A DNA stretch of 64,000 nucleotides, from the NCBI RefSeq assembly GCF_016907815.1, contig NZ_JAFBCQ010000001.1:1240001-1304000 (forward strand). Direction: 5' to 3'. This DNA comes from Microbacterium aurum. Lineage in GTDB: Bacteria > Actinomycetota > Actinomycetes > Actinomycetales > Microbacteriaceae. A program made the position numbers and the translations under genes. Numbering within the stretch: position 1 is the stretch's first letter; each line of letters begins with the position of its first letter. The notes under the pieces are model-generated. The model did no database searches. It was not told where the DNA came from and worked only from the letters and a program-made list of their open reading frames with translations. Positions 40,544 through 53,582 of this stretch are shown piece after piece.

Positions 40544-41230
40544 GAGCAGCTCCAGCGCCGCCATCGCGGCGTTGTGTCCGCCGAGGCCGCTGACCGCGCC
40601 GCTGCGCCGCGCGCCGGAGCCGCAGACCAGCACCCGCTCGTGCGCCGTGGCGACGCCCCACCGCGCGGCGGGTGTGTCGAGCGGCTCGTCATCGCCCGCC
40701 CACGACCAGGCGAGCGCCCCGTGGAAGATGTCGCCCCCGGCCATGCCGAGCGCGTGCTCGAGGTCAGTCGTCGTCTTCACCTCGATGCAGGCGCTGCCGT
40801 CCGGCGCCCGGTACACGCAGTCCATGATCGGCTCGGCGAGCACGCTGTCCAGCGGCACCTGCGCGGCGCGCAGCAAGGTGTCGCGGTAGGCGTCGGCATC
40901 GGCATCCGCCGCCAATCGGTGCGGCACCTGCAGACCGAACAGCGTCAGCGTGTGCGCCCCGGCGGCCTGCAGCGCGGGTCCGAGGATCGTCGGGTCCGTC
41001 AGAGAGTGGCAGTAGATCTCCGCAGGGGGAGCGGGGAGGGGATGCCGCCGCCCGCCGCTGCGGCATAGGCGTCGTCGAGCTGGGTCACCGTCTCGTTGAT
41101 GTGGAACGTGCCCGCGAACGCCGCCTCCGGGGAGACCTCGGCGTCGCGCAGCCGCGGCAGCCGTCGCAAAAGCAGGTTGATCTTGACCTGAGCGCCCTCC
41201 GGCGGGTCGAAAGAGTCGATTCGGCCTGCT
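40538..41230 (-). pseudogene. 3' part of a split FAD-dependent oxidoreductase gene
   Basis: C-terminal half (about 225 residues) of a phytoene-desaturase-like NAD(P)/FAD oxidoreductase. It reads from PPEGAQVKINLLLRRLPRL through FAGTFHINETVTQLDDAY, EIYCHSLTDPTILGPALQ and the FAD-closing end RVLVCGSGARRSGAVSGLGGHNAAMAAL. One single-base frameshift lies near 41,030. The N-terminal half is absent here: the reading frame runs into an insertion sequence. A matching N-terminal fragment lies at 53583-54038 on the same strand, so the island between the two appears to have split the gene. Confidence 0.78.
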
Positions 41231-41248
41231 TTCGCGACACCCGCGGCG

Positions 41249-42143
41249 CTAGGGCATGTCTCCCAATAGGGTGGCCCAGGTGAGGACGGCGTGGAGCACT
41301 GCGCCGGAGCGGTAGGTGATGGCGAGCTTGTCGTAGCGGGTGGCGATGCCGCGCCATTGCTTGACGAGTGCGAAGGACCGCTCGACGACGTTGCGGTCTT
41401 TGTAGGCCTCGGCATCGAATGCGGGCGGCCTGCCGCCCTTGCTGCCCTTGCGTTTGCGGGTGGCGATCTGATCGCTCTTCTCGGGGATCACGACCCGGAT
41501 GCCACGGGCGCGGAGCATGCGCCGGTTCACGCCGGACCCATAGGCTTTGTCCGCGAGGACCGCGTCCGGCCGGGCGCGGGGGCGCCCGCCGCCGATCCGG
41601 GGAACGCGGATGTCGTCAAGGACCTGCTCGAGCATCGCCCCGTCGTTGCGTTGCCCGCCGGTGACCACGATCGCCAACGGCAGACCGTTCCCGTCGACGG
41701 CGTGATGGATCTTCGTGGTCAGCCCGCCCCGCGAGCGACCGATACCGTGACCGGCGGGTTCGACCTTATCCAGCCGCAGATTCTTGTGATTCGATCGTGC
41801 CCCCTGTGTCCTGGTCAGGGCGGGTGGTGTTCGTCGCGTGCTGATGCGCACGCGCGATCGTCGCATCCACCGACACATCCCAATCGATCAGGCCCGCCAC
41901 GTCTGCCTGCGAGAGCAGCGCCTGCAGCACCCGATCCCATGTCCCGTCTCCGGCATACCGGCGGTGCCGCTTCCAGATCGTCTGCCACGGGCCGAACTCG
42001 CCTCGCGGCACATCCCGCCACGGCGTCGAGGTCCGGAACCGGTAGATGATCCCGTCCACGACCCGGCGATCATCACCGAATGGGTGCCCACGACGCCCCA
42101 CGTTCGACGGCAGCAACGGCGCGATCAAACGCCCACTGCGCAT
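41249..42143 (-). CDS. IS5-family transposase, expressed by frameshift
   Basis: Two overlapping frames encode one DDE transposase. The upstream frame (42143 to 41766) has the N-terminal LIAPLLPSNVGRRGHPFGDDRRVVDGI and the first Asp region (DWDVSVDATIARAHQH). The downstream frame (to 41249) has RSRGGLTTKIHHAVDGNG, VLADKAYGS and the DDE-type YKDRNVVERSFALVKQWR end. The stop TAG is completed by the target duplication. An upstream piece of the usual N-terminus (SRTRRLTDAQW, 42185-42140) is in a third frame, so one extra base near 42,135 may have inactivated this copy. Confidence 0.82.
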
Positions 42144-42230
42144 CCGTCAATCGACGCGTCCGAGAATCCACAACCGAAGCCATGTACCCAAAATCGCGCG
42201 TCAATCACAACCCATATGGGAGACACGCCC
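41252..42230 (-). mobile_element. IS5-family (IS427-group-like) insertion sequence
   Basis: About 979 bp bounded by imperfect terminal inverted repeats. The left end reads GGGCATGTCTCCCA and the right end, reverse complemented, GGGCGTGTCTCCCA; 17 of the first 21 positions match. A TA duplication flanks it within a CTAG-type target (C-TA at 41249-41251 and TA-G at 42231-42233). Two overlapping transposase frames are typical of this group. Confidence 0.85.
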
Positions 42231-51336: not shown

Positions 51337-51354
51337 CGCGATCCTCCCTCCGTG

Positions 51355-53220
51355 CTACTTGTCGAATTCGGCGTCGACGACGTCGTCTTCGTCGTCCTGA
51401 GCGGGCTGCTCAGCGTGGCTGGCGTTCGCGCGGGCCGCAGCAAGGGACTGCGCAACCTGCAGCAGCTCGCCGGTGCGCTCTTTCGCTTCCTGCTCGCCGA
51501 CGTTGTTTGCCACCGCTTCACGCGCCTGCGTGATGAGCAGCTCCGCGCGGGCACGCTCGTGCTGCGGTGCAGCGTCGCCGAGCTCACGCAGTGCCCGCTC
51601 GACCTGGTAGGCGGCGGAGTCCAGCTCGTTGCGGGCGTCCACGGCCTGGCGCAGCGCCTGGTCGTCAGCACGGTGCTGCTCGGCTTCCTTGATCATCCGG
51701 TCGATCTCGCCCTGGTCGAGGTTCGAGGTGCCGCTGATCGTGATCCCCTGCTCGGTGCCGGTGTCCTTGTCTTTCGCGGTCACATTCAGGATGCCGTTCG
51801 CGTCGATGTCGAAGGTGACCTCCACCTGCGCTTCGCCGCGAGGCGCCGGACGGATACCGGTGAGCTGGAACCGGCCGAGCACCCGGTTGTCTGCGGCGTT
51901 CTCCCGCTCGCCCTGCAGGACGACGATCTCCACCGACGGCTGGTTGTCCTCCGCCGTGGAGAACACCTCGCTGCGACGGGCGGGGATGGTGGTGTTGCGT
52001 TCGATGATCTTCGTCATCACACCGCCGCGGGTCTCCACACCCAGCGACAGCGGGGTGACATCCAGCAGCAGCACGTCGTCGACGTCGCCCTTGAGGACGC
52101 CCGCCTGGATGGCGGCGCCCACAGCGACCACCTCATCGGGGTTCACCGTCATGTTCGGCTCCTTGCCGCCGGTGAGCCGCTTGACGAGCGCTTGGACAGC
52201 GGGGATGCGGGTGGAACCGCCCACGAGGATGACCTCGTCGATATCGTTCTCGCTGACCTTCGCGTCAGCCATCGCCTGACGCACCGGGCCCAGGCAGCGC
52301 TCCACGAGGTCGGCCGTGAGGTCCTCGAACTTGGATCGCGTGACCGTCATCGTCAGGTGCTTCGGTCCGCTGGCGTCAGCGGTGATAAACGGCAGGCTCA
52401 CCTGCGTCTGGCTGACCGAGCTGAGCTCGACCTTGGCCTTCTCGGCCGCTTCGAACAGACGCTGCAGCGCCTGCGGGTCGTTGCGCAGGTCGATGCCGTT
52501 CTCTTTCTTGAACTCGTCGGCAAAATAGTCCACCAGCCGGCGGTCGAAGTCGTCGCCGCCCAGGTGGGTGTCACCGGCGGTGGATCGCACTTCGACGACC
52601 CCGTCGCCCACGTCGAGGAGGCTGACATCGAACGTGCCGCCACCGAGGTCGAACACCAGGATGGTCTCGTGGTTCTTCTTGTCCATTCCGTACGCCAGTG
52701 CGGCGGCCGTGGGCTCGTTGATGATGCGCAGCACCTCGAGCCCGGCGATGCGTCCGGCGTCCTTGGTCGCGGTGCGTTGGGCGTCGTTGAAGTAGGCGGG
52801 AACGGTGATGACGGCCTCGGTCACCTTCTCACCGAGGAACTTGCTGGCGTCGTCGACGAGCTTGCGCAGCACCAGCGCGCTGATCTCCTCGGGCGCATAG
52901 AGCTTCCCGCGGATGTTGAACCGGGCCTCGCCGTTGGGGCCTTCCACGACGTCGAAGCCGACGGCGTTGGCTTCCTCCTTGATCTCGTCGAAGGACCGGC
53001 CGATGAACCGCTTGGCGGACGAGATGGTGCCCTTCGGGTTGAGGATGCTCTGCCGGCGGGCAAGCTGCCCCACCAGCCGTTCACCGTCCTCGGTGAAAGC
53101 GACCACCGACGGGGTAGTGCGGGCTCCCTCCGCGTTCGGAATGACCTTCGCCTCGCCGGCCTCCCAGACGGCGATAACGGAGTTCGTGGTTCCCAGATCG
53201 ATTCCTACTGCCTTGGCCAT
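51355..53220 (-). CDS. dnaK: DnaK (Hsp70) chaperone
   Basis: A 621-residue Hsp70. The nucleotide-binding domain starts GIDLGTTNSVIAV, with phosphate loops VFDLGGGTFDVSLLD and LVGGSTRIPAVQ. The linker DVLLLDVTPLSLGVET leads to the substrate-binding domain, and the acidic tail ends DDVVDAEFDK. Complete length. ATG 53220 with AAGGAA upstream. It opens the long minus-strand stress operon. The non-canonical partner set (CbpA and CbpM instead of DnaJ1 and HspR) suggests it is an extra copy, not the housekeeping operon (inference). Confidence 0.97.
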   Translation of the reverse strand: MAKAVGIDLGTTNSVIAVWEAGEAKVIPNAEGARTTPSVVAFTEDGERLVGQLARRQSILNPKGTISSAKRFIGRSFDEIKEEANAVGFDVVEGPNGEARFNIRGKLYAPEEISALVLRKLVDDASKFLGEKVTEAVITVPAYFNDAQRTATKDAGRIAGLEVLRIINEPTAAALAYGMDKKNHETILVFDLGGGTFDVSLLDVGDGVVEVRSTAGDTHLGGDDFDRRLVDYFADEFKKENGIDLRNDPQALQRLFEAAEKAKVELSSVSQTQVSLPFITADASGPKHLTMTVTRSKFEDLTADLVERCLGPVRQAMADAKVSENDIDEVILVGGSTRIPAVQALVKRLTGGKEPNMTVNPDEVVAVGAAIQAGVLKGDVDDVLLLDVTPLSLGVETRGGVMTKIIERNTTIPARRSEVFSTAEDNQPSVEIVVLQGERENAADNRVLGRFQLTGIRPAPRGEAQVEVTFDIDANGILNVTAKDKDTGTEQGITISGTSNLDQGEIDRMIKEAEQHRADDQALRQAVDARNELDSAAYQVERALRELGDAAPQHERARAELLITQAREAVANNVGEQEAKERTGELLQVAQSLAAARANASHAEQPAQDDEDDVVDAEFDK

Positions 53221-53582
53221 GTCGAGCTTCCTTTCGATTGAGGTGAGCGCCCGGTTTCCGAGCCGCCGAAGCGAGCGCCGCACGGTTCTCAGTGGAGGTG
53301 AAACACCTAGATCTCGCTGTTCTTGTGTACGGGGCGCACACGCCTTCTGGAACGCCTTCGAGTTTAAGCACGCCGCGATGACATACCCGCCTCGCCGTCA
53401 GGTCCATCGTGGACCGCTGTTCCATTTTTTACAAGCAAGCGAACTGGAAGAAGACGCTCGAACAACCTCCGCGCTCCCTGAGCGCATCGACCGCTACCTC
53501 TGATCTCTCGCCGCCCTAACTGGGGCGCCCCCCCTTGCGCTACGATCCGAGCCCATACCGAAACAGGAGGATCAAGACGCAT
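53221..53582 (-). promoter_or_regulatory. Upstream region of the dnaK operon
   Basis: Non-coding, 362 bases, and the only place where the main stress operon promoter can lie. It has a 13-base inverted repeat AGGTGAAACACCT (53296-53308) and a 15-base one GGTCCATCGTGGACC (53401-53415). I see no CIRCE element and no HAIR element (CTTGAGT-N7-ACTCAAG). On the plus strand a GGAGG ribosome-like site (53566-53570) faces the oxidoreductase remnant, as if a start codon of another gene had been lost at the island edge. Confidence 0.5.

What the first reader, a model, noticed from the sequence alone, without database searches (positions are those of the whole stretch)
41230..53582. Compact protein-quality-control island, possibly an actinobacterial counterpart of a stress-tolerance locus
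Ten same-strand genes combine dnaK, grpE, cbpA, cbpM and clpB with a zinc-ribbon thioredoxin, a UBP zinc finger, a cNMP-sensing reductase-like flavoprotein, an alpha/beta hydrolase and hsp20, with a YflT stress gene downstream. Seen: gene order, tight spacing, insertion within another gene. Known: proteobacterial transmissible loci of stress tolerance pair Hsp20, a Clp ATPase and thioredoxin. Inferred: this is an independently assembled, Hsp70-based transferable heat or oxidative stress module.
Basis: partly seen in the sequence, partly recalled or inferred. Interest (0 to 1): 0.88.

Follow-up and report, generated by a model that had tools for sequence, protein, structure and literature searches.

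The report
Mobile spare heat-shock chaperone gene island
A Microbacterium chromosome carries a borrowed second set of protein-rescue genes that also turns up, nearly unchanged, in distantly related bacteria, including two milk-associated members of a genus reported to survive pasteurisation, so it may be a shared heat-survival kit that can now be tested.

Summary
Window ~41204-53577 (12.4 kb; G+C 66.8% against 71.4% outside) is an insertion in an oxidoreductase gene of a Microbacterium chromosome. On one strand it carries dnaK-grpE-cbpA-cbpM-clpB-trx-zfUBP-flavoprotein-hydrolase-hsp20 and yflT. The core dnaK operon with hspR and the core clpB lie elsewhere. Copies in Brevibacterium, Actinomyces, Piscicoccus and other Microbacterium are 95-98% identical in DNA, although core DnaK is only 74-79% identical across these families: recent transfer. 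The window's copy is a chimera of two island lineages, switching near 49.45 kb. Close copies occur in 8 of 366 genomes of the genus. The eight-gene core is an older actinobacterial module, so it was not assembled here. It is not the proteobacterial tLST: its disaggregase is ClpB, not ClpK/ClpG. New details: the core ClpB of this genus lacks the N-terminal domain and the island supplies a full-length ClpB; the "reductase" lacks thioredoxin reductase's CxxC. M. lacticum DSM 20427 and Microbacterium 2C (micro-filtered milk) carry it; the genus is reported to survive pasteurisation. One paper names a "heat shock island" with such genes in Propionibacterium freudenreichii, in a figure legend. The heat function is inferred, not tested.

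The parts
41204..53577 (.). whole insertion (island)
   Evidence: edges where homology to the intact gene in six relatives stops; G+C
53578..54039 (-). 5' part of the interrupted NAD(P)/FAD oxidoreductase gene
40541..41203 (-). 3' part of the same gene, also frameshifted; no longer functional as one gene
41251..42231 (-). IS5-family insertion sequence at the left end (DDE transposase in two frames; ends GGGCRTGTCTCCCA inverted)
   Evidence: Pfam DDE_Tnp_1; plasmid hits; ends
42232..42494 (+). relic of a bile-acid:sodium symporter / arsenic-resistance-like gene
   Evidence: 66-75% DNA identity to 7 plasmid records
42512..43039 (-). yflT (general stress protein domain), 175 aa
   Evidence: PF11181
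43215..43664 (-). hsp20 small heat shock protein, 149 aa
   Evidence: PF00011
43696..44568 (-). alpha/beta hydrolase, 290 aa (GHSMG)
   Evidence: PF00561; sequence
44565..46280 (-). cNMP-binding domain plus thioredoxin-reductase-like flavoprotein, 571 aa, without the reductase CxxC
   Evidence: PF00027 and PF07992
46277..46537 (-). UBP-type zinc finger protein, 86 aa
   Evidence: PF02148
46534..46986 (-). thioredoxin with N-terminal zinc ribbon (WCGPC), 150 aa
   Evidence: PF00085 and PF21352; TIGR01068 over its cut-off
46983..49607 (-). full-length ClpB disaggregase with N-terminal domain, 874 aa
   Evidence: TIGR03346 1336 bits over cut-off 1232; Clp_N
49598..49909 (-). CbpM/HspR-like MerR-type protein, 103 aa
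   Evidence: PF13591; below both the HspR and CbpM cut-offs
49906..50793 (-). CbpA-type J-domain protein, 295 aa
   Evidence: PF00226 and PF01556
50797..51336 (-). grpE, 179 aa
   Evidence: PF01025
51355..53220 (-). second dnaK, 621 aa
   Evidence: TIGR02350 956 bits over cut-off 822.6
49444..49464 (.). main lineage switch (recombination point) of the chimera, in the 5' part of clpB
   Evidence: diagnostic sites; trees

Best explanation
A laterally acquired auxiliary protein-disaggregation operon. Step 1 (shown): the genome gained, by transfer and recombination within a pool of related islands, a second DnaK-CbpA-GrpE set, a full-length ClpB, a thioredoxin, an Hsp20 and accessory proteins. Step 2 (inferred from known DnaK/ClpB biochemistry): under heat or oxidative damage Hsp20 holds unfolding proteins, DnaK with CbpA and GrpE pulls them from aggregates and passes them to ClpB, and thioredoxin reduces wrong disulphides. 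Step 3 (inferred): CbpM tunes CbpA or represses the operon. Step 4 (inferred): the extra, N-domain-bearing ClpB adds capacity that the core ClpB of this genus, which lacks that domain, does not offer, so carriers survive heat or oxidative shock better. The roles of the UBP zinc finger, the CxxC-less cNMP flavoprotein and the hydrolase are unknown.
For: Gene content and order. Second copies beside core ones: 2 dnaK in each of 10 genomes checked; own core dnaK operon with HspR over its cut-off and a HAIR-like operator (recalled consensus) before the core dnaK (11 of 14) and core clpB (13 of 14), none in the window. Transfer: lineage-A islands 94.9-97.9% DNA identity over about 9-12 kb between Microbacterium, Brevibacterium, Actinomyces and Piscicoccus against 74-79% core DnaK; families from the taxonomy; Microbacterium lineage-A copies rejected as one clade, p 0.0013 and 0.0175; transposase or integrase genes in flanks of M. 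lacticum, Actinomyces, M. ihumii, M. paulum and T2.11-28 copies. Chimera: dnaK-cbpM tree puts the window with lineage A (99, window+M. lacticum rejected p 0.0116), clpB-flavoprotein tree with M. lacticum (100, window+A rejected p 0.0007). N-domain: 0 of 23 core ClpB loci of the genus, 7 of 7 of other families (22 of the 23 hold at least 563 nt upstream); Pfam. Link to heat: M. lacticum DSM 20427 (L044) and Microbacterium 2C (L046) carry it and PMC7642513 (passages) reports pasteurisation survival in the genus and heat-resistant M. lacticum.
Against: No expression or survival data. No HAIR site or sigma-70-like promoter found before the window's dnaK, and the upstream hsp20 of lineage A is missing, so this copy may be poorly expressed. 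Several carriers (Actinomyces provencensis, Piscicoccus, M. ihumii) have names or sources that do not suggest heat-treated niches. Heat resistance of strain 2C itself was not stated in the passages seen. In the genus only 8 of 366 genomes carry the close form, so heat resistance ascribed to the genus at large cannot rest on it alone.
Confidence: 0.62

Rival explanations
1. A laterally acquired module chiefly for oxidative, thiol or chlorine stress (thioredoxin, flavoprotein, zinc finger, DnaK/ClpB for oxidised aggregates), with heat tolerance a by-product.
For: Thioredoxin, zinc-ribbon and flavoprotein are conserved in the module across the class, while hydrolase, hsp20 and yflT vary. Zinc ribbons and zinc fingers often sense thiol state (recalled).
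Against: The flavoprotein lacks the CxxC of thioredoxin reductase in 25 of 26 aligned rows, the last being a gap, so it is not a standard thioredoxin reductase; five of the eight core genes are aggregate-rescue chaperones.
Confidence: 0.25
2. A decaying hitch-hiker: the island arrived on a plasmid or by insertion sequences and is carried without selection.
For: Left end is an insertion sequence and a gene relic; hsp20 upstream of dnaK lost here and broken in M. lacticum; tail lost in several copies; no recognisable promoter.
Against: All eleven genes are open and full-length here; dnaK is 97.7-98.7% identical in protein to lineage-A copies, which speaks for constraint or recent arrival.
Confidence: 0.12
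3. [quoted passage not shown]
For: Small Hsp, Clp ATPase and thioredoxin on a transferred island.
Against: Clp ATPase is ClpB by NCBIfam; ClpK and ClpG models score 785 and 792 bits against cut-offs of 1900; no FtsH, HtpX, DegP, KefB, PsiE, YfdX or HdeD domain among the island ORFs scanned.
Confidence: 0.01

Closest known systems
Heat shock island of Propionibacterium freudenreichii JS9 and JS20 (PMC5644110, passages seen)
   Same: [quoted passage not shown] strain-specific island in an actinobacterium.
   Different: Sequence not held here, so identity, order and lineage were not compared; the legend gives no thioredoxin, zinc finger or flavoprotein, and the passages seen give no phenotype or distribution outside that species.
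Second dnaK-grpE-cbpA-cbpM-clpB-trx-zfUBP-flavoprotein module of large actinobacterial genomes and of Streptomyces, Rhodococcus and Arthrobacter plasmids
   Same: Same gene order; proteins 37-84% identical.
   Different: The window's clade adds a hydrolase-hsp20-yflT tail and circulates recently between families.
Transmissible locus of stress tolerance / locus of heat resistance of Proteobacteria (PMC8290217, passages)
   Same: Transferred island with small Hsp, Clp disaggregase and thioredoxin.
   Different: Uses the self-sufficient ClpG/ClpK and proteases; here ClpB with its own DnaK set, no protease.
Core actinobacterial dnaK-grpE-dnaJ-hspR operon plus clpB
   Same: Same chaperone machine.
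   Different: Core proteins form a separate clade (support 100), are under HspR-type operators, and the core ClpB of this genus lacks the N-domain.

Membership tests
Actinobacterial second-DnaK module (dnaK-grpE-cbpA-cbpM-clpB-trx-zfUBP-flavoprotein) | conserved order of the eight genes | tested here: met
   window; complete in 9 of 12 distant regions (L110-L121) and 8 of 8 close ones (L122-L129); one close copy has a truncated flavoprotein
Actinobacterial second-DnaK module (dnaK-grpE-cbpA-cbpM-clpB-trx-zfUBP-flavoprotein) | DnaK apart from core DnaK in the tree | tested here: met
   26 module rows against 10 core rows, one split at 100
tLST / LHR | ClpK or ClpG disaggregase | tested here: not met
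   785 and 792 bits against cut-offs of 1900; ClpB model 1336 over 1232
tLST / LHR | small Hsp and thioredoxin | tested here: met
tLST / LHR | FtsH, HtpX, DegP-type proteases and membrane stress genes | tested here: not met
   no such Pfam family in the island ORFs scanned
tLST / LHR | confers heat, pressure and chlorine tolerance | not testable with these tools
   needs bench work
Thioredoxin reductase (flavoprotein) | redox-active CxxC next to the NADPH domain | tested here: not met
   replaced in 25 of 26 rows (one gap); A375-A376-T377 invariant in 14 rows; own core enzyme has CATC; TIGR01292 203 bits under cut-off 343
HspR / CbpM (103-aa MerR-type protein) | NCBIfam equivalog cut-off | tested here: inconclusive
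   43.5 bits to HspR (cut-off 105), 37.4 to CbpM (cut-off 138)
Mobile genomic island | scattered presence, foreign composition, conflicting phylogeny, mobile genes at the edge | tested here: met
Mobile genomic island | a dedicated transfer or integration system of its own | tested here: not met
   only an insertion sequence among the window's island ORFs scanned

The most novel reading that the evidence does not exclude
The island is a circulating, recombining heat-survival kit of Actinobacteria, an Hsp70/ClpB-based counterpart of the proteobacterial tLST, and is a main cause of the pasteurisation survival of M. lacticum and related dairy actinobacteria; it works by giving hosts whose core ClpB lacks the N-domain a complete disaggregase with its own DnaK set and a dedicated thiol-repair branch.
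Probability: 0.35. Interest if true: 0.82.

Novelty: new variant of a known kind. Interest (0 to 1): 0.64.

Why it matters
Why non-spore-forming M. lacticum outlives pasteurisation is an old dairy question; the genome paper seen here (PMC7642513, passages) answers it with G+C content and generic chaperone genes. A transferred, strain-variable operon with a built-in natural comparison (carriers and non-carriers in one genus, ClpB with and without N-domain in one cell) makes the question directly testable. It would also show that transmissible stress tolerance has arisen in Actinobacteria with a different disaggregase from that of Proteobacteria.

Tried and rejected
Rejected: tLST membership. 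Rejected: only dnaK/clpB locus in the genome. Rejected: inherited genus trait at one place. Rejected: 'thioredoxin reductase' in the strict sense. Led nowhere: HAIR site in the window; the one weak hit lies inside clpB and is within chance. Sigma-70-like promoters 0 found, terminator-like sites 9 against 5.3 in shuffles. Rfam: none. Origin of 53261-53577: no plasmid match. Pfam on the 190-aa gene upstream of several lineage-A copies: none. Close island form on plasmids: not found among 72,556 records (flavoprotein relatives on 13 plasmids, all under 60% identity). The hydrolase search found a wide family and said little. Papers: ten searches found one paper naming such an island (PMC5644110); the library holds open-licence papers only.

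Limits: genus, order and class searches are samples or one genome per species; E 1e-140 and 1e-40 cut-offs were mine. One search scored only the 8000 candidates sharing most words. The N-domain test used one query, the island's own; three further queries in that script were empty through a slip. Core ClpB of the nine further matches was not examined; G157, of another family, has an open frame of only 757 aa and may lack the domain too.
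Full report
What is there. The window is G000:C1:1240001-1304000 of a single-contig 3.41-Mb genome. Eleven minus-strand genes lie between 42512 and 53220: dnaK, grpE, cbpA, cbpM, clpB, trx, zfUBP, cNMP-flavoprotein, alpha/beta hydrolase, hsp20, yflT. From dnaK to the hydrolase neighbours overlap by 4-10 nt or lie 3-18 nt apart; hsp20 follows after 31 nt and yflT after 175 nt, so one operon of ten genes plus yflT is the simplest reading.

It is an insertion. In six relatives whose gene is intact, homology to the window stops at 41203-41206 on one side and 53578-53597 on the other, and 0.43-0.52 kb of the gene is missing at the site. 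The gene was found in 128 of 277 genomes of the genus, own included. The remaining 3' part is also frameshifted. The left edge holds an IS5-family element (ends) and a relic of a symporter/arsenic-type gene. G+C is 0.668 against 0.714 outside, lower than each of 79 overlapping windows.

It is additional. The genome has a core DnaK (TIGR02350, 903 bits over 822.6) followed by grpE, a DnaJ-type gene (below every DnaJ cut-off) and HspR (123 bits over 105), and a core ClpB. HAIR-like sites stand before the core dnaK (11 of 14 positions) and core clpB (13 of 14); none with 11 or more lies in the window. Eleven of 14 also occurs by chance elsewhere in the scanned loci, so only the clpB site is strong. 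The consensus is recalled. In lineage A a core GAGT-N7-ACTC lies before the upstream hsp20 in 6 of 8 loci, which hints that those copies are under HspR-type control; the window and M. lacticum lack it.

It has moved between families. One genome-collection scan gave eight named or species-level carriers: M. lacticum, Brevibacterium casei, M. paulum 2C, Microbacterium sp. T2.11-28, Microbacteriaceae PS02068, Actinomyces provencensis, Piscicoccus intestinalis, M. ihumii; G033, G310 and three genomes of one other family (G700, G589, G520) were found. Lineage-A copies (L045-L051, G033) share 94.9-97.9% of DNA over about 9-12 kb. The same genomes' core DnaKs are 74-79% identical between families, island DnaKs 97.6-99.2% among lineage A of different families. 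In both island trees the six Microbacterium lineage-A copies are rejected as one clade (p 0.0013 and 0.0175). A protein cluster of 456 member sequences at 81% identity to the flavoprotein bears a Micrococcus luteus name.

It is a chimera. Against M. lacticum and lineage A, diagnostic sites go A 534, B 82 from 53.6 to 49.55 kb and A 35, B 353 from 49.3 to 46.0 kb. About 37 of the 82 B sites lie at 53222-53575, outside genes where the alignment is poor, and a run of 17 at 52267-52450 may be a further short patch. From 44.5 to 42.5 kb the sites do not decide (A 32, B 37). Trees agree: dnaK-cbpM joins the window to lineage A (99; window with M. lacticum rejected, p 0.0116), clpB-flavoprotein joins it to M. 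lacticum (100; window with A rejected, p 0.0007). These tests used groups chosen after seeing the identities, so the p values are somewhat too kind.

How common. Flavoprotein matches at E 1e-140 or better: 11 of 366 genomes of the genus, 8 of them at 79% identity or more, own included; 8 of 396 in the order sample, 4 of them at 80% or more, own included; 25 of 394 in the class sample, of which only the own one is close. The distant form keeps the eight-gene order in 9 of 12 fetched regions; one (L116) has the last genes turned, one (L117) shows only the last three, one (L121) only the flavoprotein. Thus the module is old and the window's clade is a recent, mobile offshoot with a hydrolase-hsp20-yflT tail, which is complete or contig-cut in 7 of 13 other close copies; an eighth lacks hsp20.

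The ClpB detail. The own core ClpB (745 aa) has no Clp_N domain by Pfam, the island ClpB has it. With the island N-domain as query, 0 of 23 core clpB loci of the genus and 7 of 7 of other families gave a match; 22 of the 23 hold at least 563 nt upstream, one only 173. So the island gives the cell its only ClpB with a substrate-binding N-domain (ClpC has one but is another enzyme). That this matters for function is inference from recalled ClpB biochemistry.

The flavoprotein detail. It has a cNMP-binding domain, a middle stretch that to my eye resembles a glutaredoxin-like domain (no tool support), and a thioredoxin-reductase-like part. The CATC of the own core enzyme is replaced by YAAT or YSAT in 25 of 26 rows, the other being a gap, and a cysteine nine residues on from the AAT is invariant in the 14-row alignment (C384). 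It is therefore not a standard thioredoxin reductase; its acceptor is open. By sequence the nearest solved structures are thioredoxin reductases, with ferredoxin-NADP reductases further down.

What is known. [quoted passage not shown] freudenreichii strains; the words 'heat shock island' occur in that paper alone among those held. PMC7642513 (passages) reports that Microbacterium survives pasteurisation, that M. lacticum 18H and Microbacterium 2C came from micro-filtered milk, and lists generic dnaK, grpE, dnaJ and clpB; 'horizontal' does not occur there. Strain 2C is our L046 (contig NZ_JAAGRY010000018) and DSM 20427 our L044. PMC8290217 (passages) describes the tLST with ClpG and says nothing of Actinobacteria under that word.

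Verdict. 'Assembled independently' should be replaced by 'an old actinobacterial module that became mobile'. Heat or oxidative tolerance remains the likeliest function and is untested.

Noticed in passing
L131:1636-3873 (G000:C1 about 711635-713869) and L133-L155: Core ClpB of this genus appears to lack the N-terminal domain (0 of 23 loci; one locus holds too little upstream sequence), unlike 7 of 7 loci from other families.
   Followed up: partly
L100 (NZ_CP084557.1 138329-160592): A plasmid of Arthrobacter typed as conjugative carries dnaK-grpE-cbpA-cbpM-clpB near annotated ftsH, a mechanosensitive channel, a trypsin-like peptidase and a general stress protein: a set even closer in flavour to the tLST.
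   Followed up: partly
L098 (NZ_CP108713.1 123080-149519): A Streptomyces linear plasmid combines the chaperone operon with PsiE-family, Hsp20 and HSP18-regulator genes and a divergent 594-aa helix-turn-helix gene next to dnaK; a similar 559-aa one stands by dnaK in L100.
   Followed up: no
L050:2292-2524 and 12401-12633; same in G033: A 233-bp direct repeat (about 90% identical) flanks the island on both sides in Piscicoccus and G033, perhaps a trace of how it moved.
   Followed up: no
L050:1861-2433 (-), L036:863-1435 (+), L045:1909-2481 (-): A 190-aa gene without Pfam match travels upstream of several lineage-A islands (tested by Pfam in L050 and L036).
   Followed up: partly
window 44565-46280: cNMP flavoprotein family with invariant cysteine C384 but no thioredoxin reductase CxxC; electron acceptor unknown.
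   Followed up: partly
G310:C1:2226444-2228078: One genome holds both a close island and a second, 50% identical flavoprotein alone without the chaperone genes within the 20 kb fetched (L121).
   Followed up: no
window 53261-53577: About 0.3 kb upstream of the island's dnaK with no match found; holds whatever promoter the operon uses here.
   Followed up: partly
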